This document shows, piece after piece, positions 1,579 through 15,729 of a stretch of 16,445 nucleotides of DNA. The DNA comes from Willaertia magna. Taxonomy: Eukaryota; Heterolobosea; Eutetramitea; Acrasida; Naegleriidae. The number at the start of each line of letters is the position of its first letter. Positions within the stretch are counted from its first letter, which is position 1. A program made the translations under genes and the position numbers. Under the pieces are notes generated by a model. That model searched no databases. It had not been told where the DNA came from and saw nothing but the letters and a program-made list of their open reading frames with translations. The stretch is taken from NCBI GenBank assembly GCA_902984215.1, contig CADWAF010000915.1, positions 1 to 16,445 of the forward strand, given 5' to 3'.

Positions 1579-2784
1579 TTAAATTGTAACATGAGAGAAT
1601 GCATCTTCAATATCTTGAATTAAATCTTCTGCATCTTCAATACCAACACTTAAACGAATTAAAGTATCATCAATACCTAATTTCTTTCTTTCTTCCAAAG
1701 GAACTGAAGCATGTGTCATAATTGCAGGGAAGTTTACTAAACTTTCAACCCCACCTAAACTTTCAGCTAATTGGAAAATCTTAATATTTTCTAAGAATTG
1801 TCTTGATTGAGTAATGTCACCCTTAATCCAGAAAGTAATCATACCACCAAAACCAGTTGTTTGTTTAACACCAATATCATATTGTGGATGAGATTTTAAT
1901 CCAGGATAAACAATCTTTGCAACTTTTGGATGATTTTCTAAATATTTTGCAACAGCAATTGCATTAGCTTCATGTTGCTTCATACGAACGTGTAAAGTCT
2001 TTAAACCTCTTAAAGCTAAGAAACTATCAAATGGACTTGGAATACAACCTAATGCATTTTGTAAATATTTAATTCTCTTATAAAGATTATCATCAACACA
2101 AGCCATAACACCCATAACAGTATCAGAGTGACCATTCATATATTTAGTAACAGAATGCATGACAATATCAGCACCATGATTTAATGGACGTTGGAAATAT
2201 GCAGACATAAATGTATTATCAACAACTAAAAGAGCATCTGGACAATATTGATTTCTCCAATTTGATACTCTTTCAATGTCAGTAATCTTTAAAGTTGGAT
2301 TTGTTGGTGTTTCTAACCAAATCATTTTAGTATGTGATTTAACATGTTTTTTAAATTCTTCTTCATCGTTTAAATCAATGAAAGAGAATTCAACACCAAA
2401 GTTAGATGCAATATTTCTAAAGTAACGTTGGGTACCTCCGTAAACATCATCAACAGAGATAACATGATCTCCAGCCTTTAATAAGTGTAAAATTGTAGTA
2501 GTTGCTCCGAGTCCAGAACTAAATGCACAACCATATTTACCATTTTCTAATTTTGCAACACAAGCTTCAAATGCATCTCTTGTAGGGTTTGCAGTTCTTG
2601 CATATTCATAATTTCCTTGATATTTAACACCAGGTGAGGTTTGAGCAAAAGTTGAACTTAAAGAAATTGGAGTAATAACTGCACCGGTAATTGGATCTGG
2701 ACTTTGACCTGCATGAATTGCATCAGTTGCAAAGTGTTTGAATGGTTCAAGGAGTGTTTTAGAAGTATTATCGTTTGCTGACAT
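1579..2784 (-). CDS. Cystathionine gamma-lyase (PLP enzyme)
   Basis: An intronless 401-residue protein, full length for the Cys/Met-metabolism PLP family. The pyridoxal-phosphate lysine is Lys214 in SVTKYMNGHSD. Other family residues are Tyr61 and Arg63 (EYARTANPT), Gly91 in SSGLGAT, Tyr115 (DDVYGGT), Asp189 (VVDNTFMS) and Arg377 (LIRLSVG). By family knowledge the enzyme splits cystathionine to cysteine, 2-oxobutyrate and ammonia in reverse transsulfuration and can release hydrogen sulfide. The overall pattern, including SLGGVESL and PAIMTHAS, is closer to eukaryotic lyases than to bacterial cystathionine gamma-synthases, but the two are hard to separate by eye, so synthase activity is the alternative. 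The N-terminus has no obvious targeting peptide, suggesting a cytosolic protein. The ATG follows an A-rich leader. Confidence 0.93.
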   Translation of the reverse strand: MSANDNTSKTLLEPFKHFATDAIHAGQSPDPITGAVITPISLSSTFAQTSPGVKYQGNYEYARTANPTRDAFEACVAKLENGKYGCAFSSGLGATTTILHLLKAGDHVISVDDVYGGTQRYFRNIASNFGVEFSFIDLNDEEEFKKHVKSHTKMIWLETPTNPTLKITDIERVSNWRNQYCPDALLVVDNTFMSAYFQRPLNHGADIVMHSVTKYMNGHSDTVMGVMACVDDNLYKRIKYLQNALGCIPSPFDSFLALRGLKTLHVRMKQHEANAIAVAKYLENHPKVAKIVYPGLKSHPQYDIGVKQTTGFGGMITFWIKGDITQSRQFLENIKIFQLAESLGGVESLVNFPAIMTHASVPLEERKKLGIDDTLIRLSVGIEDAEDLIQDIEDAFSHVTI

Positions 2785-3022
2785 TATTTATTTTTGAGAT
2801 ATTTTTTCTTAATGCTTCATCTTCTCCAATAATTCATTCCTCTCCTTTTATTTATTTTCCAATTTCAAAGAATGAGGCTCAATTGGGTAGCTCCGCACTG
2901 TTATGCGCTTATTTTTTCTTGGGAACTGAAATTGTTTGAAGGAAAAACTTTAAGTGAATTGTTGAGAATGTTTTATTGGTTTTTAATTGATTGAGATACA
3001 GTTTGTTTGAAAACAATGTTAT

Positions 3023-3232
3023 TTATAAATGGGTATATTCTAACGGATCTACTACTGGTGGATTATTATGTTCTTGAAGTTGATCATGCTTGGATTTGAC
3101 TAAATCCCTAGAAAGTTCTAATTTAATTTTATTTTCTTCAAAGTGTTCTTTATATTCATCAACCATATGTTTTAATTCTGGATCACTCACTTTCTTTTCG
3201 TTATTACCTTCTCTTTTATCTTCTGATTGCAT
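3023..3232 (-). CDS. Small charged protein of unknown function
   Basis: A 69-residue product is predicted if translation starts at the ATG at 3232, which sits in the AAAAAACAATG context seen at other starts here. The protein is rich in Lys and Glu, probably mostly helical (LKHMVDEYKEHFEENKIKLELSRDLVKSKHD split over two helical stretches), and ends in a Pro/Val/Asp-rich tail. The open frame continues upstream to about 3298 and there encodes a membrane-like stretch (LILYWSTIAGVLLLIEKT), but no ATG lies in frame, so a longer form would need an upstream exon. I do not recognise a family. It is divergent from the zinc-finger gene starting at 3414. Existence as a gene is likely but not certain. Confidence 0.5.
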   Translation of the reverse strand: MQSEDKREGNNEKKVSDPELKHMVDEYKEHFEENKIKLELSRDLVKSKHDQLQEHNNPPVVDPLEYTHL

Positions 3233-3413
3233 TGTTTTTTCAATTAATAATAATACCCCAGCAATAGTTGACCAATACAAAATCAATTGGGTTTCCAACT
3301 TCTTTTCATTGTAAAATTAGTTTCTTGTATTTTTAATTTTAGACCAATAAATTTAAACCTAAAAAATTGTTTCAACATTAATTTGCATTAAACCAACCAA
3401 CACATTCGGGAAA

Positions 3414-5082
3414 ATGAGTAAAACTAGTAATCACCAACCATCATTAAAGAAGAATTCCAACACTCAACCAACTGATGCATTATTAAAACAACAAGTCTCT
3501 AAGAGTACTCCTTTAAATAACCTAACGGATTGCGTTTTTTACTTGAAAGATATGTGTACAAAAGTAGAGTATCGTTTTATTATTTGAGTAGAAGTAAGAG
3601 AAGATTACTTCTAGAAAAGAATGAGTTTTTTACTTTGCATTATATTTCTTCTGCTACCATTATCTTTTGCTTGTTGTTGGTTGAGTGTTTTTTATTTGCT
3701 TTTTTCAATCCCGAATTTTTATCCATACAAAATCCGAAAGGTTAAACCTGTAAAGACAAAGATCCCTGTATTCTTGCAAGAATATTACTTGTAATTATTG
3801 TTTACAGTTGAGGATAAGACGTTGTAGACAGCAGTAATGAAAGATTGGAGAAGTTTTGTATTTTACGATGCATACAAAAGGAGTACTCTTATTTGTTTAC
3901 GAGAAAGACAATTAAATTTATCTTTTTACTTGACTTGGAAGATAAATACTTTTATTTGCTAAAGAAAAGGCCTATCCTATATTTTATGCCGAACAAAGGT
4001 TTTAGGCTTATGCTACTATCCATCCATTTAGTTCGTTTAGTTTCCATACCAAATAAGAACAAGGCAAAGATAGTGGTAGCAGAAGAAGATGGATGGTCCT
4101 TTTTTATCTCTTCTTTTCTTTTGGGTATTTTCTCTTACTTTTATTTTTTTACGAACATTTTTTTTTACTAACACTTTTTTATTTATTTTATTATGATAAT
4201 TAGGGAGATAAATGTGAGTTTAGACATTGTGAAGCAACAAAACATAATACAAGAATTTGTAAATTTTGGACAAGGGGAGAATGTTTAAATAAGGATTGTT
4301 CATTTAGACATCCAACTATAAAACCAACAGTAGAACCAACCGTTACACCATGTTATTTTTATTCTATTGGAAGTTGTACTAAGGTTAATTGTCCTTTTTT
4401 ACATCAAAAGCCTGAAGTTAATAATAATACTATTAATAATGAATCTACTACTGTGTCAAAAATTGTGACAGAAAAAAAGGATATTGTAACTAATAAGAAC
4501 AATGAAGAATTGAAAAAGAGAAAAGAAATTGTAAAAGAAAATAAGTTAGATAATAAGTTGGTAAATAATAATGAAGTTCAAAATACAAAAAAGAGAAAAT
4601 TTGTTCGTGATATTAAACGTAAAGAAAATGATGACAGTATACTTTCAAATGATAAAGAAATTGAAAAGGAAGAGAAAGACATTAGTGAAGTAGTTACTCC
4701 TGTAATATCTGAGATTTCACAAGAAATTATTTGTCCTCAAAATAATATTCAACAACAAAAAGAAACAACTAATCAAGAAAATGAAGAAAAATCGACAGTA
4801 AAAGAAACGAAAGAAATTAAAAGAAAAGGATGGAAAAAACCTATGGCAAGCTCCATAAAGAAGAAAACTAAGACTCATCATTCCCATTCACCTATTAAGG
4901 AACATATTCCTTTAGAAGAGAAACAACCATTTAATGTAAAACAAACTGGTACAGATGATTTTGAGGACGAGCTTAAACAATTTGAAGAAAGTCTATCTAC
5001 TACACCTTTTACAGAAATTAAAACTGTTGGAGCTCAAATGGATTGGGAGTCAACCTTGGAAGAATTTAAAGAATATTTGTAA
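3414..5082 (+). CDS. Three-finger CCCH zinc protein, ZC3H11A-like
   Basis: Two exons, 3414-3563 and 4204-5082, encode 342 residues. Three CCCH fingers stand near the N-terminus: Cys40-Cys48-Cys54-His58, Cys69-Cys77-Cys82-His86 and Cys100-Cys108-Cys113-His117 (CX7CX4-5CX3H). Their order and wording (DCVFYLKDMCTKGDKCEFRH, then C-KFW, then PCYFYSIGSC) match the N-terminal module of animal ZC3H11A, a nuclear RNA-binding protein tied to TREX-dependent mRNA export. Residues 120-300 are low-complexity Lys/Glu/Asn-rich and probably disordered; the C-terminal 40 residues are acidic and more ordered (FEDELKQFEESL). The single intron is 640 nt and splits finger 1 between Lys50 and Gly51; removing it is what completes that finger. 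The exact cellular role is inferred from the family. Confidence 0.85.
3589..3613 (+). repeat. Intronic hairpin, 9-bp stem
   Basis: TAGAAGTAA at 3589-3597 pairs perfectly with TTACTTCTA at 3605-3613 around a 7-nt purine loop, 25 nt inside the 5' splice site. It could affect splice-site choice, or be chance in AT-rich sequence. Confidence 0.6.
3769..3784. repeat. 16-bp perfect palindrome in intron
   Basis: TATTCTTGCAAGAATA reads identically on both strands. It may be a dimeric protein binding site or a relic of an inserted element; no function is shown by the sequence. Confidence 0.6.
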
Positions 5083-7002: not shown

Positions 7003-8631
7003 ATGAGTATTACAGTCACACCTCCAATACAATGGCAATATGATGACATTATGGTAGATCAGTGTAATTATGCACCTCCACTCTATATTCAAAGAGCTCA
7101 CAGAATTCCACCAAGTGGTTTTTGGCGTATCTATTTACTAGGAACAATCTTTGGTTTTGCACTTGTATTTTACGTTTGCATTTTCGCATTAGTTATAATA
7201 AGAAGAAATAAATCACCATTAAAAGATAGATCACCATATTTACTTTTAGTTTCTGCAGTTGCAGGTTCTTTAGGTTTAGCATATATGTATAGTAGATTAT
7301 ATCTTGATTTAGCTTTAGTTTGTCCAATAACTTATTATGTTGTTGCTTTTGCTTTAATAACGTATTTTGTACCATATCTATTCCGTTGTTTTAGAACAAT
7401 TATGCAGGTAAGTAATTATTATTATTACACAACTAGTTCAATAATTATTAATATACTGCTGACAATAGTGGAAACTTGCAAAAGCAAAAGCTGAATTAAT
7501 GGATTCTAATCAACCATCTAGTACTCCTAATGATAAGAAACCAGTTAAAAAAGTAAAAGAAGAAAGTGCCACAGTTGACGTTGAATTAGTAGAAGAAGGA
7601 AGAAAAGGAGGAAATAAGAAATTTAAATCCGTAGCAAAGAATGAAAAATATGCAAAGTTAATTGCTTCTCAATTTTACTTTAGTGAAAGATTTTTAATTA
7701 TTGTTTTAATTGTTTTATTAGCTGTTTGGGCTTTATTAGTTTTTATTATTCATATGATTGTTTTATTCGGAGGAAATTCTTTAAATCCTTCTTGTCAAAA
7801 GAGATGTAATGAACATGAAGGTATTGCACTTAGAGCTTTTATTGGTTTTACAATTTTATTAATTATACCTTTTGCTATTTTACTTTTTATGATGAGAAAT
7901 ATTAATGATGATTTCTCTATTAGAAATGAAATGATTATCATGTTTGTATTTGCTATTATGATGGCTATACCTTTAATTGTTTTGGCTGCTACACCGGGAG
8001 CTTTTTGGTAAGTAGAATACTTCTTTAAATTAATACTAACAATGAATAACATCATGTTAATTGATAATATAGGCCGGAATCAGCAACGGTTGGTTATTTC
8101 ATAGGTATCTTACTATTTGGTAGTTTCTTAATTTCAGTTATCTATCCTTTAGGTTTATCTCTATTACGTACTACCAACTTTTCAACTCTATTTAAATTTA
8201 ATAAGGCTGATGAAACAACGGTACAAGAAGTTTCTCAGGCAAAAGTTCCTCAACATGAAACATTTGATTTCTATTTAACAGATAGTGAAGCTAGAGAAGT
8301 TTTTAAACAATTCCTCGTTCGTGAATTCTCCGTTGAAAATTTAATGTTTTATACTGAAGTTCAATACTTTAAACAATTAGAACAAGATGATGAAACGTTA
8401 AAAGAAACTGCTCAAACAATTTATGATACTTATGTTCAATTAGGTGCTCCTTTTGAGATTAACGTTCCTCAACCATTAAGAGATGAAGTTAGAAAGTCAA
8501 TGGATAAACCAAATCTTAGTATTTTTGATCAAACTGAAAATGCTGTTAAAAAGACAATGGAAGAGGAAAGTTTTGTTCGTTTTAAGAAATCTAGACTATT
8601 CCAAAACTTTATTACAAAATTCCAAAAGTAA
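7003..8631 (+). CDS. Seven-transmembrane RGS-domain protein
   Basis: Three exons (7003-7407, 7469-8007, 8073-8631) encode 500 residues; the introns are 61 and 65 nt, the second with a TACTAAC branch site at 8034-8040. Hydrophobic helices lie near residues 42-66, 78-98, 104-127, 210-235, 256-277, 289-311 and 320-346. Between helices 3 and 4 is an 80-residue Lys/Glu-rich loop. Residues 378-498 form an RGS domain (DFYLTDSEAREVFKQFLVRE, then the SVENLMFY contact motif). RGS domains speed GTP hydrolysis by G-alpha subunits; membrane-anchored 7TM forms are known from plants (AtRGS1) and several protists and may act as receptors or constitutive brakes. The last 20 bp overlap the end of the convergent RCC1 gene. 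Confidence 0.9.
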
Positions 8632-9943
8632 TAGAAAAAACATCATTAGTATAAGGAGAACATAAAACTATAGAACCCCATCCTCCACAAGCAATACATG
8701 ACACACCTAATTGTTTCTTTCCATTTACATCAATTATCATTGACTTTGGAAAAGTTTCCATCAATTTATCACTACAAACCGTTGGAATAATAAAAGGTTG
8801 TAAATTATCATTCACACTTTGTTGAAAACCAGAATGTCCAAACACTAATGCTCTACCAAACTTATCTAACAACATGGAATGATAACCACCACATTCTGCT
8901 TGTACAATATCCTTAAAATAAGAATGTTTTAATAGAACGCCGTCCTTAATAACTTTACCTTCCTCTTCTACTTCTTTACTTCTACATAAACAATTATATT
9001 GATCTCTTCCACAACTATATACACCACCTGAAGCACTAACAAATAATGCATGATAATATCCACATGCACCTGAAACAATAGGATCACCAAAACCCATAAT
9101 TTTAGTAATTGATCTTCTACTGGAATGTGACGATGCACCATTAACCATTTGGTCAATCTCACCACAACCATAAACCTCACCATTCTCACTAATAAAGAAA
9201 GAAAAATCATATCCAGCACATGCACTCACAATATTTACATTTTCTAATCCTCTTACCATTGTACAGGAATTTCCAAAACCTTGTCCCATAGAAAACGCTT
9301 TTTTATTAACATCTATTAAGATTGTATGGTAGTAACCGCAATGTACAGATTTTATCTTTTTAGATCTTAAATTTGTTTTTTTAAGTAAAACAGCGGAATA
9401 ATTAGAGTTAGAGTTTAATACTTCACCAAGTTGACCGTGTGAATTATCTCCAGTTCCAATAATTTCACCATTTCTTGTTAGTAATACTGTAAAATAATAA
9501 CCACATCTAACTGAGATTATTTCTTCATCTAATGATTCAATTAGTGTTGGTGAATCTATTGAAGAATGTAAATTGGAAGGATGTCCACATTGACAATTAG
9601 AATTTTGTCCACAACTAAGAACTCTTCCATCAGTTGTCAACATTATAGTATGAGTATACCCCATTGTAATTTTCTTAATTTTAAAGTTAGGTTGTATATA
9701 CTTAGGATCTAGTGGTGATGAAGTTACAGTTGTAGGGATTCCTCTTTGAGCACTTTGTTCTCCCATTGAAAATATTATAGATTTACTTGATTCACAGTTA
9801 TCTGTAAACATTTTCTGTTTCTTTTTATTATCATTAAATTGGCGATCACTTCCGCTGTCTCTGTTATCACCATTGTTATTGCTGTTATTGTTATTGGTTT
9901 TATTGTTAGATTTACCACGAAAGAAAGAAATTAAACTTTTCAT
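8612..9943 (-). CDS. RCC1-repeat protein, seven repeats
   Basis: An uninterrupted frame of 443 residues. The first 50 residues are Asn/Ser/Lys-rich and probably disordered. From about residue 85 there are seven RCC1 repeats, recognisable by motifs such as MGYTHTIMLTTDGRVLSCG, CGYYFTVLLTRNGEIIGTG, CGYYHTILIDVNKKAFSMG, CAGYDFSFFISENGEVYGCG, CGYYHALFVSASGGVYSCG, CGGYHSMLLDKFGRALVFG and CGGWGSIVL; seven is the number that closes a propeller. No BTB or other partner domain is present. The family acts in guanine-nucleotide exchange or protein docking; the specific role is unknown. The start used is the ATG after an AAATAAAA leader, but an in-frame upstream exon (10103-10045) is possible. The stop lies inside the last codons of the opposite-strand RGS gene. 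Confidence 0.88.
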   Translation of the reverse strand: MKSLISFFRGKSNNKTNNNNSNNNGDNRDSGSDRQFNDNKKKQKMFTDNCESSKSIIFSMGEQSAQRGIPTTVTSSPLDPKYIQPNFKIKKITMGYTHTIMLTTDGRVLSCGQNSNCQCGHPSNLHSSIDSPTLIESLDEEIISVRCGYYFTVLLTRNGEIIGTGDNSHGQLGEVLNSNSNYSAVLLKKTNLRSKKIKSVHCGYYHTILIDVNKKAFSMGQGFGNSCTMVRGLENVNIVSACAGYDFSFFISENGEVYGCGEIDQMVNGASSHSSRRSITKIMGFGDPIVSGACGYYHALFVSASGGVYSCGRDQYNCLCRSKEVEEEGKVIKDGVLLKHSYFKDIVQAECGGYHSMLLDKFGRALVFGHSGFQQSVNDNLQPFIIPTVCSDKLMETFPKSMIIDVNGKKQLGVSCIACGGWGSIVLCSPYTNDVFSITFGIL

Positions 9944-10249: not shown

Positions 10250-11311
10250 TTATTGTTCCCATTCTTCATCTTCTTCTTGTTCTGTACCTGTTTGTAAGGC
10301 TTCATCTGCGCTGTATTCTTCTTTCAAATTATAAAAACCTTTGAATTCTCCAGCCCTATTATAATTTGCAATTTTTGAAAGAATACCTTTAACAGCATCT
10401 TTTGGTTGATCAGTTTCATTAGCTAAGTCTTCCAATTTCCAATACTTTTTTTGTTTGAATAAATTGAATATATCTTTACGAATTTCATCTTCATCCTTTC
10501 TAACACGGTTATCTCTAGGTCCTTCTGATTTTTGAGTTTTTCTATATGCATCCATCAAGTTGGTAGTTTTCTTAGAAGGTACAACAATAGTACTTGCTCC
10601 TCCTTCTGTAGTGCCAGGTGTTACGGAAACATTGTCAGAAGATGAAGCAGCACCACGAGAATACTTAGAGACTTTGTCATATTGTTGTGAGAATCTATCT
10701 TTACGACTTGATTCTGTTTCTCTTTGCTTAGTTATCAATCCGTAAGCCTTTTGATTAGCCTTAACTACAGCATTGCAACTTAAATCAACATGTCCTAGGA
10801 TTTTAATTTCTGTTTTATCTATATAATCTAATTTTACTAGTGGTTCAATCTTCTTTCTTAATCTTAAACGTTCTCTGTCTTGTGTTTCTTCTTCAGTTAA
10901 CTTATTAAAACTAAAAACATACATAGGAGTACGTTTCTTATTATGTTGAAGACTAAATTGTGTTAAAACTTGTCCATTTTGATGGGTGCCTTGTTGAGGT
11001 GGTGTTATATTTAAAGATATGTCAGTCTTTTTATTTAATGTGTTTTCTTCTATAATAACGGAACCAATTGGTTCATCATCTTTATATTGTTCTAAATCTA
11101 TAAAATCCGGAATTTTAACAAGCCAAACTTTTTGATTAGCGTCATCTCCATTAACAATTCCTTCTAATGGAATTATTTCTCTTTTTTTTCTTTTATTTGT
11201 TACTACAGTACTACCACTTGATGATGATGTTGGTGGATTATTTGTAACATTGGTGGAAACTGGTAGTGATGATTGTGAAGTAGGTGAAGCTTTTCTTTTC
11301 TTATCATTCAT
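10250..11311 (-). CDS. Transcription factor TFIIF, beta subunit
   Basis: An intronless 353-residue protein. After a Ser/Thr-rich N-terminus of about 48 residues comes the TFIIF-beta dimerisation region (VWLVKIPDFIDLEQ, then the GSVII strand and the MYVFSF segment near residue 130), a basic middle section with Ser/Thr-rich linker, and near residues 268-333 the C-terminal winged helix (RKDIFNLFKQKKYWKLEDL, then LSKIANYNRAGEFKGFYNLK). The tail is acidic. In other eukaryotes this subunit (RAP30/GTF2F2/Tfg2) pairs with the alpha subunit, binds RNA polymerase II and helps it join the promoter complex. It is somewhat longer than human RAP30 because of the N-terminal tail and central linker. The gene is divergent from the Zn2Cys6 gene across 246 bp. 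Confidence 0.9.
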   Translation of the reverse strand: MNDKKRKASPTSQSSLPVSTNVTNNPPTSSSSGSTVVTNKRKKREIIPLEGIVNGDDANQKVWLVKIPDFIDLEQYKDDEPIGSVIIEENTLNKKTDISLNITPPQQGTHQNGQVLTQFSLQHNKKRTPMYVFSFNKLTEEETQDRERLRLRKKIEPLVKLDYIDKTEIKILGHVDLSCNAVVKANQKAYGLITKQRETESSRKDRFSQQYDKVSKYSRGAASSSDNVSVTPGTTEGGASTIVVPSKKTTNLMDAYRKTQKSEGPRDNRVRKDEDEIRKDIFNLFKQKKYWKLEDLANETDQPKDAVKGILSKIANYNRAGEFKGFYNLKEEYSADEALQTGTEQEEDEEWEQ

Positions 11312-12525: not shown

Positions 12526-14378
12526 ATGAACGAAGTCAATAATTTCGGGGAAACGAGTAATGTTGGTAATCTCCCAGTGAATGCAAGTGCAACAACAATA
12601 GTAGAAGCTGAAACTTTAGATACAAAACAAATACCAAATGAACATCATAGTCATTGGAAAGCAGAAAGTATTACTTTTTTAGTAGGTATGTTTTTTTATT
12701 GAAATTTTTCTAGTTCATTCTTTTCCGTTAAAAGTTCTTGGAGTCTTTCAAGTTATATTTTTAATTCTCTTTTGGGTCTTCTTTGACTATGAAATAACTG
12801 TAACTAATAGTACTGAAACTAGTAATGTAGCAATAGAGCATGAAGCTGAAGAGAAAGTAAAACGTTATTATAAAACAATGTTAGATGTTGGTGTTATGTG
12901 TTATGTTGGTTTTGGATTTTTAATGACTTTCTTAAAGAAATATGGATACAGTGCATTCGGATTTAACTTTTTAATTTCAGGTAAGTTAATTATTTTGTTG
13001 TGAAATCTAATGAATATTTCCTTATTATTTAATTTATAGCATTTATCTTCCAATGGGGTGTACTAAATCAAGCTTTTTGGAGAGGTGTCTACCATGGTTT
13101 TCCAATAACAGGAGATGCTGCTAATCTTTCTTTACCTAGATGGATGGTTCACTTTGAAATGCCTGATTTAGTTGAAGGTCACTTTGCAACAGCATCTGTA
13201 TTAGTTTCTTTTGGTGCTTTCATTGGTAAAGTCACACCTTTACAATTATTAGTTGCAGGTTTAATACACGTAGTTTTTTATGCTGTGAATTTCTATGTTG
13301 GTGGTTTAGTATTTAGAGCTGCTGACATTGGTGGTTCTATGTTTATCCAGTAAGTATTTTCTTTCTAATTTTTTCTTTGGTGACTTAGACATTTGACCTT
13401 TTCCTAAACCTTTTCGTTTTGTGGCTTAGTTTATACGGAGCTGTTTTTGGTGTTACAGTTGCCTTTATTTTGTGGAATAAGAAAGCTCTTGCTGGACATC
13501 CTGCACAAATTTCAAGATATACATCTGATTTATTTTCATTAATTGGTACAATCTTTTTATTCTTATGTTGGCCATCTTTCAATGGTGCTGTAAGTATTAG
13601 AAATTATTTATTTATTGTTGACAATTAATTTAACAGTTAGCAGCTACTTACGCTCAACAATTCAGAACATTTATTAATACAATTATGTCATTGATGGGTT
13701 CTACAATTGCCACTTTCTTTGTTTCCAGACTTGTAAGAGGAGGTCTTTTTGCAATGGAAGATGTTCAAAATGCAACTCTAGCAGGTGGTGTAGCAATAGG
13801 AGCTGTTGCTGATTATGTTATACAACCAGGAGGTGCCTTAACAGTTGGTTTGGTTGCTGGTGCTGTAAGTGCTCTTGGATTTAGATTTGTTACTCCAAAC
13901 ATGAGAAAATACCTTAAAATTCATGACAGTAAGTAGTTCAATATTTATAGGTACTAACGTTAATTCTTATTTTAGCTTGTGGTGTTACAAATCTACACGG
14001 TATGCCAGGTTTCCTTGGTGGTGTCGCAAGTATTGTAGCTGCAGGTGTTGCAGCCGGTCAAAGATACAACTATGGATCAACCTATGATATTATGTTTAAG
14101 TAAGTGTTGTTTTTATTACAATATTTTGTAACGCATTGTAAAGAAAAGGAACTCACCAATGGGGTTACCAATTTGCAACCTTAGCTGTTACTATTGGTAT
14201 TGCTGTCACAGGTGGTGTTATTGCAGGTTTTGTTATTAGGTGGTTATTCCCTGAAAAGACACTCTTTGTAGATGAGGCATTCTGGGAAGTTGCTTCTGAC
14301 GATTTAAAGGTTGAAGATCCAGAGGAGGAAACCAGTGCAGATAAAAAGAATAATGACATTGAATTAAAAGATAAATGA
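12526..14378 (+). CDS. Rh-type ammonium transporter
   Basis: Seven exons: 12526-12685 (or -12667), 12714-12980, 13040-13349, 13430-13589, 13637-13928, 13976-14099 and 14144-14378; about 515 residues. Introns are 44-80 nt except the first, 28 nt with the GTATGT donor or 46 nt with GTATTA; both keep frame. The product is rich in membrane helices and carries strong Rh-family motifs: MCYVGFGFLMTFLKKYGYSA, SDLFSLIGT, WPSFNGA and QNATLAGGVAIGA. The two pore histidines are His246 (SMFIHLYGAVFG, codon split by the third intron) and His404 (TNLHGMPGF), 158 residues apart as in animal Rh glycoproteins. These proteins conduct ammonia or ammonium (and possibly CO2) across plasma or vacuolar membranes. 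A roughly 55-residue hydrophilic N-terminal extension precedes helix 1; the tail is charged. The ATG was chosen for its TAAAAATG context. Confidence 0.93.
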
Positions 14379-14567
14379 ACAGTTTTTAACTAGAGTTTTC
14401 ATAATGAATTGTATAATTATGATTTTATTTGATTATTAAAATTTAAATAAATTTTGAGATAGCCTTTTTCCGTTTATTACGCCCGGTTATTATAATCAAG
14501 TCACGAACCATTATTTGATCTGTCAGAAATTCACTTGCGTTCAGTTATCATCTTTTAAAAAAAAACA
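14379..14567 (+). promoter_or_regulatory. Upstream region of the peptide-precursor gene
   Basis: This 189-bp AT-rich spacer holds the 3' flank of the transporter and the leader of the next gene, ending in an A9-CA tract just before the ATG. No named element was recognised. Confidence 0.3.
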
Positions 14568-15263
14568 ATGAACAAGAGTATTTTAATAGCAACTGTTCTT
14601 GCAGTTTTATTCTTTGTTGCTTTTGCTGAAAGCAGATGTTATAGAACATATTATGGATTGTGGAAATGTTATGATGCAGTAGATGAACAATCTGACATCC
14701 GTAGAAATGTTGCTTTCTCTGACATCCACTCAAATAGAGAATTTGCTGATGCAGATATTAAATTCGGTAAAATCTTCAAGAAGATTGGAAAGATCGGATT
14801 AAACTTAGGTAAAGCATATTTAAGAACTCAAGGTATTCCATTAAATGATGAACAAGCAGATAAATTCTGGAAGAAATTGTGGGGTGTTGTTAAACAAGTT
14901 GGTAAAGGTGCAATTAAATCATATGTCAATCAAAACTTTGATGCAGAAGCTGATTTTAAATTAGGTAAATTATTAAAGAAGGTTGGTAAAGTTGGTTTAA
15001 AGTTAGGTAAAGCATATTTAAGAACTCAAGGTTTACCATTAGAAGATAATCAAGAAGTTACTGCACCAAGAAGAATATCTCCAAGAAGAAGATTCAGCGC
15101 AAAGAGAAGATTAATCAGAAGAAGAGTTAATGTTGAATCTGACAAATTTTGGAAGAAACTTTTCAAAGTTGTTGGTCAAATTGGAAAGGGAGCAATCAAA
15201 TCATATGTTAATCAAAATTTTGATGCTGAAGCAGACAGACTAATTAGAATTGGATGTTGTTAG
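14568..15263 (+). CDS. Secreted precursor of tandem cationic helical peptides
   Basis: An intronless 231-residue protein. Residues 1-22 form a clear signal peptide (hydrophobic ILIATVLAVLFFVAFA). Residues 23-63 are a propiece with two cysteines (24, 34) ending in FADAD. Then come A1 (64-92), B1 (98-129), A2 (130-158) and B2 (192-223). A segments are Lys/Gly/Ile amphipathic helices ending GKAYLRTQG; B segments begin DKFWKKL and end SYVNQNFDAEAD. An Arg-rich insert (163-191) lies between A2 and B2; the end is RLIRIGCC. Alternating acidic-Ala spacers before the A helices resemble dipeptidyl-peptidase-processed precursors of insect and amphibian antimicrobial or lytic peptides. I infer secretion or granule storage and membrane-active peptides, perhaps against bacteria. 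It does not look like saposin-fold amoebapores. Family not recognised. Confidence 0.8.
   Translation: MNKSILIATVLAVLFFVAFAESRCYRTYYGLWKCYDAVDEQSDIRRNVAFSDIHSNREFADADIKFGKIFKKIGKIGLNLGKAYLRTQGIPLNDEQADKFWKKLWGVVKQVGKGAIKSYVNQNFDAEADFKLGKLLKKVGKVGLKLGKAYLRTQGLPLEDNQEVTAPRRISPRRRFSAKRRLIRRRVNVESDKFWKKLFKVVGQIGKGAIKSYVNQNFDAEADRLIRIGCC
14757..14954 (+). repeat. Peptide precursor repeat unit 1 (A1-B1)
   Basis: This unit encodes residues 64-129: helix A1, a five-residue acidic linker and helix B1 with the DAEAD end. It matches unit 2 closely; the stretch coding GKAYLRTQG is identical at the DNA level in both units. Confidence 0.85.
14955..15236 (+). repeat. Peptide precursor repeat unit 2 (A2-B2)
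   Basis: This unit encodes residues 130-223. It has the same A-B order as unit 1 but with an extra Arg-rich segment of about 28 residues between A2 and B2. The unit is 282 bp against 198 bp for unit 1. Confidence 0.85.
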
Positions 15264-15337
15264 ACGAAATTTACCAAAAAAATAAAAATAAAAGCAAACC
15301 AATTAGACATTTCTTTTTAGGACTTTTAATAACAGAT

Positions 15338-15410
15338 GCCCGCTTAGCTCAGTTGGTAGAGCGTGAGACTGAAGATCTTAAGGTCGCTAGTTCGATCCTG
15401 GCAGCGGGCA
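15338..15410 (+). tRNA. tRNA-Phe (GAA)
   Basis: A 73-nt intronless cloverleaf. The acceptor stem GCCCGCT pairs fully with AGCGGGC, discriminator A. The D stem is GCTC/GAGC; the anticodon stem TGAGA/TCTTA encloses the loop CTGAAGA with anticodon GAA at 15371-15373; the T stem GCTAG/CTGGC encloses TTCGATC. The internal A and B boxes (TAGCTCAGTTGG and GTTCGATCC) fit RNA polymerase III. CCA is not encoded, as expected for a eukaryotic nuclear tRNA. Confidence 0.97.
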
Positions 15411-15729
15411 TAGATTTTAGGACAGTTTCTTTTTTCTAAGTATAGTGTAAAGATTTATTGTTAAGCATTATTTGTGGCGCTTTTGTAAGGAGTATTCTGA
15501 ATACCTGAAATTAATATAAAAAAAGAATAGAATGGCAGAAGTATGCTTCATTTTTTTAATTGTAAACTTTTTAAAAATTAAAATAATATTAACTACATGT
15601 ATTATTTGTAAGAGTACATATAAAGTTATTGTTCCATTTAAAGTTAATTAGGAAGACAAGATAATTAGTTTACAAAACGTTGCAATAAAGAAAACTAAAA
15701 TACAAGAAATTTGTTATATTCAATAATTT
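15411..15729. other. Intergenic region, no clear gene
   Basis: Apart from the tRNA terminators these 319 bp show a 13-bp palindromic stretch GTATTCTGAATAC near 15491 and an ATG at 15532 opening a 39-codon hydrophobic frame (MAEVCFIFLIVNF at its start), which I do not call as a gene. No RNA gene was recognised. Confidence 0.3.
15415..15435 (+). terminator. RNA polymerase III T-run terminators
   Basis: A TTTT run at 15415-15418 lies five bases after the tRNA, with a backup T6 run at 15430-15435. Runs of four or more T on the sense strand terminate RNA polymerase III. Confidence 0.7.

What the first reader, a model, noticed from the sequence alone, without database searches (positions are those of the whole stretch)
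14568..15263. Undescribed-looking secreted precursor of repeated cationic helices
A signal peptide, a short Cys-containing propiece and two copies of an A-B pair of Lys-rich amphipathic helices make a multi-peptide precursor. This layout is typical of antimicrobial or lytic peptides in animals and would be unusual in an amoeba-like protist, where known pore formers are saposin-fold proteins. The helices, secretion signal and repeats are seen directly; antimicrobial function is inferred.
Basis: partly seen in the sequence, partly recalled or inferred. Interest (0 to 1): 0.88.

Follow-up and report, generated by a model that had tools for sequence, protein, structure and literature searches.

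The report
Amoeba peptide polyproteins with bacteriolytic enzymes
A free-living amoeba carries a whole gene family whose secreted proteins look like strings of positively charged, membrane-active peptides, and some of these strings end in an enzyme that would cut bacterial cell walls, so they may be part of how the amoeba kills its bacterial prey.

Summary
Window 14568-15263 (+) is an intact 231-aa ORF: signal peptide, Cys-containing propiece, two A-B pairs of Lys-rich amphipathic helices, an Arg-rich segment between A2 and B2, and an IGCC tail. It belongs to a multigene family with matches on 18 contigs of the window's own assembly; three database searches found other members only in Willaertia magna, Naegleria lovaniensis and five unnamed or environmental sources. 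Module copies show dN well below dS. Peptide-sized units are regularly bounded by an [E/Q/L]-[A/S]-D sequence (158 seen, 9.5 expected in 23 proteins; no clear excess in seven saposin or papain controls). The same boundary sits where peptides meet an enzyme: three W. magna proteins (one truncated) and one environmental protein end in NlpC/P60 peptidoglycan endopeptidase, one gene in a GH45 glucanase. Best reading: secreted or phagosomal polyproteins cut after Asp into linear cationic antimicrobial peptides, some co-made with a peptidoglycan hydrolase. Processing, activity and location are inferred. The paper searches made found no earlier description. Known in kind (multi-peptide AMP precursors), new in family and architecture; a testable candidate for unidentified active molecules of W. 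magna.

The parts
14568..15263 (+). Whole gene, 231 aa, single exon, stop included
   Evidence: the ORF listing; identical protein P0001 on a 336,893-base contig
14489..14496 (.). Palindrome ATTATAAT 79 nt upstream of the ATG, found upstream of 8 of 14 family genes examined (possible shared control element)
   Evidence: 4 of 77 control upstream regions have it; motif chosen after looking, so suggestive only
14568..14627 (+). Signal peptide, residues 1-20 (A-F-A, likely cleavage after residue 20)
   Evidence: by the -3/-1 rule, no dedicated predictor available
14628..14756 (+). Propiece, residues 21-63, with C24 and C34 and four [AS]D dipeptides up to the first helix
   Evidence: same CY..KC layout in paralogue C626
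14757..14861 (+). Peptide unit A1, residues 64-98 (helix 64-89, +7), ending in EQAD
14862..14954 (+). Peptide unit B1, residues 99-129 (helix 99-124, +6), ending in AEAD
14955..15047 (+). Peptide unit A2, residues 130-160 (helix 130-155, +8)
15048..15143 (+). Arg-rich linker, residues 161-192, ending in VESD; Arg-rich stretches also follow an A unit in paralogues such as C626, C739, C760 and C358
15144..15236 (+). Peptide unit B2, residues 193-223 (helix 193-218, +6), ending in AEAD
15237..15260 (+). C-terminal tail RLIRIGCC, shared as RFTRIGCC with the paralogue on C626

Best explanation
This is the precursor of several linear, cationic, amphipathic-helical antimicrobial peptides of the bacterivorous amoeba Willaertia magna. 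It enters the secretory pathway (inferred from the signal peptide), travels to phagosomes or granules (inferred), and is cut after the Asp of regularly spaced [E/Q/L]-[A/S]-D sequences by an unidentified protease (inferred), releasing peptides of about 31-35 residues that insert into and permeabilise bacterial membranes (inferred). Acidic spacers partly neutralise the helices in the uncut chain (inferred). In sister genes the same chain ends in an NlpC/P60 peptidoglycan endopeptidase or a GH45 glucanase (shown at gene level), so membrane breach and wall cutting would be delivered together.
For: Helix charge and amphipathicity. Module copies from ten genes: 21 A, 14 B and 13 LPYLKAG-type, pooled dN/dS 0.12, 0.19 and 0.09, with dN<dS in 208 of 210, 88 of 88 and 78 of 78 usable pairs. 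[AS]D exceeds the shuffle mean in 23 of 23 family proteins, by more than 2 s.d. in 20 of 23 (window: 8 seen, 1.6 expected). [EQL][AS]D: 158 seen against 9.5 expected in those 23, against 5 seen and about 3 expected in seven control proteins. 89 of 162 inter-[AS]D segments are 31-36 residues long. The boundary lies also between peptides and enzyme: LAD|TQ and ESD|SM before NlpC/P60, LSD|AT before the GH45 part. NlpC/P60 is over the Pfam cut-off in P0009, P0015 and P0018, with Cys and His motifs kept and the P0009 model matching solved NlpC/P60 folds (8er5, E 1e-9; T. vaginalis NlpC 6biq). One member, P0003, passes the Pfam cut-off of the frog antimicrobial family ocellatin (32.9 against 22.7 bits), which I read as convergence. 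In print, authors working on a T. vaginalis NlpC enzyme that did not lyse E. coli alone name cationic antimicrobial peptides or lysozyme as possible missing partners (PMC6299479, passages).
Against: No activity, peptide or transcript data were available. Helices could stay uncut; the Asp could be a helix N-cap instead of a cutting site. The [EQL] position was added after seeing the family, and the 23 proteins overlap in part. [AS]D is not confined to the family: in the control proteins 22 were seen against about 18.5 expected, and a few of these lie near domain or pro-region borders (C432, C733, C163, C408). The only peptidase family C13 hit in the assembly reads like a GPI transamidase rather than a secreted legumain (recalled motifs), so no protease is named. 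Some units are near neutral or acidic (for example -3 for the NFLLDILKGAAKDYVNKNWD type), and nine units of 33-39 residues in N. lovaniensis P0013 run from -2 to +4 with tails counted. The T. vaginalis enzyme failed to lyse E. coli even with the outer-membrane permeabiliser EDTA, so opening the outer membrane alone may not be enough.
Confidence: 0.7

Rival explanations
1. An unprocessed secreted structural or coat protein of helical repeats, for instance of the cyst wall or cell surface, with Arg-rich stretches binding acidic polymers; the Asp before each helix is only a helix cap.
For: [AS]D precedes helices and Asp/Ser are known helix caps (recalled). A GH45 glucanase fusion would fit wall remodelling. 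AlphaFold2 shows helices but cannot show cutting.
Against: The same boundary sits before enzyme parts that are not such helices (NlpC/P60, GH45 part, and the SH3_3 domain of the C754 protein), which a helix cap does not explain well. Unit number and order differ between paralogues. NlpC/P60 enzymes act on bacterial peptidoglycan (established for the family).
Confidence: 0.14
2. A precursor of secreted signalling peptides (pheromone- or neuropeptide-like), as multi-copy peptide precursors often are.
For: Tandem near-identical units behind a signal peptide, regular boundaries.
Against: The window's units are 31-35 residues, strongly cationic and amphipathic, of different types in one chain, and in relatives joined to a peptidoglycan hydrolase.
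Confidence: 0.06
3. A cationic carrier or targeting part whose job is to bind bacterial surfaces (LPS, teichoic acids) and concentrate enzymes or opsonise prey, without itself killing.
For: Cationic helices and Arg-rich stretches next to NlpC/P60 and GH45.
Against: Of the 12 G000 ORFs listed, three belong to enzyme-bearing genes (L010, L015, L020); the other nine and the window's show no enzyme domain. The boundary motif separates helices from the enzyme.
Confidence: 0.1

Closest known systems
Naegleriapores and other amoebic saposin-like pore formers (Naegleria fowleri; Dictyostelium Apls)
   Same: Several antimicrobial polypeptides released from one secreted precursor in a close relative (PMC5890168, passages, citing Herbst 2004).
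   Different: Saposin-fold domains with conserved Cys. The window family shows no such domain, and its helices hold no Cys. W. magna also has saposin proteins (C432, C42, C733). These show no [EQL][AS]D excess (1, 0 and 0 seen); C42 has no [AS]D at all, whereas two of six in C432 (residues 26 and 192) and the single one in C733 do lie beside or between domains, without the acidic context.
Linear cationic alpha-helical antimicrobial peptides of animals (ocellatins and the like)
   Same: Length, charge, amphipathicity; P0003 passes the Pfam ocellatin cut-off, while P0002, P0004 and P0007 match it below the cut-off.
   Different: The resemblance is a 10-residue stretch; other short-helix Pfam models also give weak sub-threshold matches. 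No common precursor layout is known to me. I read it as convergence.
Trichomonas vaginalis NlpC/P60 peptidoglycan hydrolases
   Same: Protist NlpC/P60 enzymes that act on bacteria (PMC6299479, abstract start and passages); fold matches 6biq, 6bim, 8ev4.
   Different: No antimicrobial peptide units in the same gene are mentioned in the passages seen; the authors looked for an outside partner.
Artilysins (engineered endolysins fused to membrane-active peptides)
   Same: Cationic or amphipathic peptide joined to a peptidoglycan hydrolase (search listing and abstract starts only).
   Different: Man-made fusions; here a natural polyprotein with a boundary motif that suggests separation.

Membership tests
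Multi-peptide antimicrobial peptide precursors (works like) | Secretion signal | tested here: met
   Residues 1-20 by composition and the -3/-1 rule; a Met followed by a hydrophobic stretch in 11 of 12 G000 ORFs checked, the twelfth running off its contig
Multi-peptide antimicrobial peptide precursors (works like) | Repeated cationic amphipathic units | tested here: met
Multi-peptide antimicrobial peptide precursors (works like) | Proteolytic release of peptides | not testable with these tools
   Boundary motif only; no peptidomics
Multi-peptide antimicrobial peptide precursors (works like) | Antimicrobial activity | not testable with these tools
   No assay
Saposin-like pore formers / naegleriapores | Saposin B domain with conserved cysteines | tested here: not met
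   No Pfam match to saposin in the window protein; helices hold no Cys; AlphaFold2 shows separate helices at low confidence
Ocellatin family PF08110 | Score over the curated cut-off | tested here: not met
   Window protein has no match; relative P0003 passes, over a 10-residue stretch
NlpC/P60 PF00877 (sister genes P0009, P0015, P0018) | Score over cut-off with catalytic Cys and His in place | tested here: met
   51.7, 51.6 and 49.3 bits against 23; DCSG and GHVGIY kept; fold match of the P0009 model. P0006 is truncated before the His and scores 12.5 bits, so it fails
Artilysin-like joint molecule | Peptide and hydrolase stay in one mature molecule | not testable with these tools
   The boundary at the junction speaks rather for separation

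The most novel reading that the evidence does not exclude
Naegleriid amoebae make natural polyproteins that hold, in one chain, membrane-breaching peptides and the peptidoglycan endopeptidase that profits from them, cut apart in the phagosome by an undescribed Asp-specific protease; this family is the main bacterial killing device of these amoebae and supplies the still unidentified antimicrobial molecules of Willaertia magna.
Probability: 0.27. Interest if true: 0.92.

Novelty: new variant of a known kind. Interest (0 to 1): 0.75.

Why it matters
Known pore formers of amoebae are saposin-like. A second, unrelated arsenal of linear helical peptides, in many units per genome and partly with built-in peptidoglycan hydrolases, would change the picture of how bacterivorous protists kill and where such peptides arose. 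It gives a named, testable candidate for an open practical question: lysate of W. magna C2c Maky inhibits P. viticola directly (PMC7463879, passages), its mode of action is stated to be undeciphered mainly because most of the molecules are unknown (PMC10609735, passage), and the amoeba eliminates intracellular L. pneumophila (PMC7168187, passages). Other candidates exist: a bactericidal permeability-increasing-type transcript was among the most highly covered in W. magna, and polyketide synthases were noted (PMC7285305, passages). The joined hydrolase also bears on the question why a Trichomonas enzyme cannot lyse E. coli alone.

Tried and rejected
Saposin/naegleriapore membership: rejected. 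Known structural or enzymatic family for the window protein: none over cut-off; solved-structure hits are weak, best E 0.04, to what look like designed helical repeats and to unrelated chains, taken as composition. Legumain as the cutting protease: the single C13 hit in G000 reads like GPI8/PIG-K with a membrane tail (recalled motifs); the assembly is probably partial, so not excluded. Prokaryotic or viral origin of the family: no relative in genome contigs (242 pattern matches, none confirmed) or viral contigs (43, none confirmed), both from one or two short patterns, so weak negatives. [AS]D as a general pro-region motif of this amoeba: not settled. Seven control proteins (three saposin, four papain-type) hold 22 [AS]D against about 18.5 expected and 5 [EQL][AS]D against about 3 expected, so no clear excess; but single ones lie at or near borders in C432, C733, C163 and C408, and the C754 NlpC protein has its only one exactly between propiece and SH3_3 domain. 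Misprediction of the GH45 fusion: rejected, since splicing two GT-AG introns (101 and 99 nt) from the assembly DNA gives exactly the 352-aa database protein. Upstream palindrome: 8 of 14 family genes against 4 of 77 controls, Fisher p 1.3e-5, but the motif was picked from the same genes, paralogues are not independent, control starts are only first Met of long ORFs, and one of the four controls is itself a distant family member. Caveats on counts: dN/dS copies were picked by a sequence pattern, which lowers dN; the 23 proteins include overlapping ones (for example P0007 and the C739 ORF).

Full report
What is in the window. The ORF at 14568-15263 (+) is real and intact. It encodes a signal peptide, a propiece with C24 and C34, unit A1 (64-98), unit B1 (99-129), unit A2 (130-160), an Arg-rich linker (161-192), unit B2 (193-223) and the tail RLIRIGCC. 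At DNA level the A units match over 119 nt (81%) and the B units over 100 nt (77%). Between A1 and A2 dN is 0.17 and dS 0.35, between B1 and B2 0.17 and 1.86, both over short stretches. Each helix is more amphipathic than shuffles of its own residues (p 0.0014 to 0.0076). AlphaFold2, with a shallow alignment of 13 sequences, gives four separate helices and no confident fold (mean pLDDT 42). The gene lies between an ammonium-transporter gene (PF00909, 50.7 bits against 23.2 for one exon) and a tRNA-Phe gene.

Where it comes from. A protein search finds the identical 231-aa protein on a 336,893-base contig and relatives in Willaertia magna. The window's assembly G000 (19.2 Mb, 894 contigs) is W. 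magna or nearly so: the ORF on C342 is identical over 341 aa to W. magna ABK040_000104 (P0003). A published W. magna c2c maky assembly is 36.6 Mb (PMC6892926, passages), so G000 is probably partial, and counts from it are lower bounds. W. magna belongs to the Naegleriidae.

A family. Searches of G000 with the window protein, P0005 and P0013 hit 18 contigs in all: C268, C739, C358, C760, C626, C699, C50, C762, C782, C359, C342, C266, C95, C865, C813, C221, C164 and C855. C813 holds only short pieces, and C221, C164 and C855 are distant. Three database searches returned 18 distinct proteins at the loose cut-offs of E 1, 1 and 5: the window's own, 11 named W. magna, one Naegleria lovaniensis (P0013), three unnamed from ENA or Logan sets (P0008, P0012, P0014), and two JGI ones (P0017, P0018). 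Two were weak when first found. P0017 had E 0.56 and was accepted by eye for its A-like unit between [AS]D boundaries; it then formed part of alignment A2, so its E is not independent. P0016 had E 0.047 and was accepted because its start repeats the C865 protein. P0018 was found through A2 (E 5e-39), and a direct comparison with the window protein gives E 2e-13 (single comparison). No animal, plant, fungal or bacterial name was listed; candidates are limited to proteins of similar length sharing short exact words, and searches scored only about 8000 candidates each. No relative was confirmed in viral contigs or in bacterial and archaeal genome contigs.

Selection. Module copies gathered by pattern from ten G000 genes, the window's included, are 21 A, 14 B and 13 LPYLKAG-type, with pooled dN/dS of 0.12, 0.19 and 0.09; dN is below dS in 208 of 210, 88 of 88 and 78 of 78 usable pairs. 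Picking by pattern lowers dN. The paralogue C626, over 180 aligned codons, has dN 0.26 and dS 0.66. The modules are coding and conserved, not random low-complexity sequence.

The boundary. In 23 family proteins [AS]D exceeds its shuffle mean every time, and by more than two standard deviations in 20. Of 142 distinct boundary contexts followed by at least 20 residues, P3 is E in 59, Q in 37 and L in 25 (121 of 142); P2 is A in 82 and S in 60; the next residue is K in 53. In the window itself 5 of 8 [AS]D have E or Q at P3. Cutting after each D would give pieces of which 89 of 162 are 31-36 residues long. [EQL][AS]D occurs 158 times against 9.5 expected in the 23 proteins, and 5 times against about 3 in seven saposin or papain-type controls; the [EQL] part was added after seeing the family. 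Homology of the units explains part of this conservation. Two points favour a processing site over a helix cap. A, B and the DEIF-type units of P0018 do not look alike. And the motif stands where the chain meets another domain: LAD|TQATPGQ and ESD|SMNGGS before NlpC/P60, LSD|ATYQC before the GH45 part, and EEESD|SFAPI before the SH3_3 domain of the C754 NlpC protein. The controls are not wholly clean: C42 has no [AS]D, but C432 has two of six beside domains, C733 its single one between its saposin domain and the rest, and C163 and C408 one each close to what I take, from recall, to be the start of the mature protease. A wider use of the motif in this amoeba is therefore open. The protease is unknown; the only C13 peptidase found reads like a GPI transamidase.

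The enzymes. P0009 (C358 in G000, continuous frame), P0015 and the environmental P0018 carry NlpC/P60 over the Pfam cut-off. The DCSG and GHVGIY motifs are kept. The P0009 model matches NlpC/P60 crystal structures, best 8er5 at E 1.1e-9, and T. vaginalis NlpC2 at E 8e-7, although the peptide part of that model is of low confidence (residues 1-202 below pLDDT 50). P0006 (C762) ends early, before the catalytic His, both in the database protein and in G000. P0018 has a signal peptide, alternating A-like and DEIF-type units and then NlpC/P60, so the layout also exists in a distant relative, although its contig is only 1375 bases. The C95 gene joins signal peptide, one A unit and an Arg-rich part to GH45 (186 bits, cut-off 27); its two introns splice exactly to P0010. 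Of the four NlpC/P60 matches in G000, two belong to family genes and two (C754, C633) carry no helix units that I could see.

Mechanism. My reading: entry into the secretory path, cutting after [AS]D in an acidic phagosome or granule, release of amphipathic helices that breach prey membranes, and, from some genes, simultaneous release of a wall-cutting enzyme. Shown here: sequence layout, conservation, gene-level fusion, kept catalytic motifs. Inferred: secretion, cutting, activity, place. From print: a T. vaginalis NlpC enzyme did not lyse E. coli alone, even with EDTA as outer-membrane permeabiliser (data not shown there), and the authors name cationic antimicrobial peptides or lysozyme as possible partners (PMC6299479, passages). 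This supports a need for partners but also warns that breaching the outer membrane may not suffice. A later paper repeats the need for partners and reports Lcn972-type peptides, with a predicted beta fold, in Trichomonas (PMC12612818, passages). Against: some units are near neutral or acidic, so the chain may hold helper or pro-units as well as killers.

Novelty. Searches for Willaertia, Naegleria, Heterolobosea and amoeba with antimicrobial peptide, naegleriapore or polyprotein precursor listed no title or abstract start describing this family. Passages of PMC9928731, PMC7285305 and PMC7696429 mention antimicrobial compounds, antimicrobial peptides in general or uncharacterised proteins, but not this; their supplementary tables could not be opened. 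Subscription papers and patents were not searched. The kind (multi-peptide AMP precursor) is known; the family, its boundary and its joined hydrolases appear new. I score it a new variant of a known kind, interest 0.75.

Noticed in passing
L016 (G000 C782) and L045 (G000 C164), C-terminal ends of the ORFs at 2946-3506 (+) and 2273-3802 (+): Both end in a C-x3-C-x13-C-x3-C segment, a spacing that recalls plant alpha-hairpinin peptides (recalled); possibly a further type of peptide unit.
   Followed up: no
P0005, P0008, P0012, P0013, C760 ORF (L011:2646-3923): These proteins end in Arg-Gly, and P0014 in Arg-Gly-Ile; a C-terminal Gly could be an amidation substrate.
   Followed up: no
Upstream of family genes; window 14489-14496: Palindrome ATTATAAT 45 to 152 nt upstream of 8 of 14 family genes against 4 of 77 other ORFs; post hoc.
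   Followed up: partly
L047 (G000 C432), L050 (G000 C42), L049 (G000 C733): Saposin-type proteins, two of them with several domains and so alike in kind to naegleriapore precursors, are present in the same assembly.
   Followed up: partly
L055 (G000 C163) and L058 (G000 C408): Papain-type proteases with one AAD each close to what looks like the start of the mature enzyme; the boundary motif may have a wider use.
   Followed up: partly
L041 (G000 C754), ORF 3169-3996 (+): SH3_3 plus NlpC/P60 protein without helix units but with an EEESD boundary after a short propiece.
   Followed up: partly
L022 (G000 C813): Two short B-like pieces about 1.1 kb apart beside near-identical duplicated stretches, probably remnants of family genes.
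   Followed up: no
window 1579-2784 (-), 8612-9943 (-), 10250-11311 (-), 13685-13936 (+), 15337-15411 (+): Cys/Met PLP enzyme, RCC1 repeat protein, TFIIF beta, ammonium transporter exon and tRNA-Phe: ordinary neighbours.
   Followed up: partly
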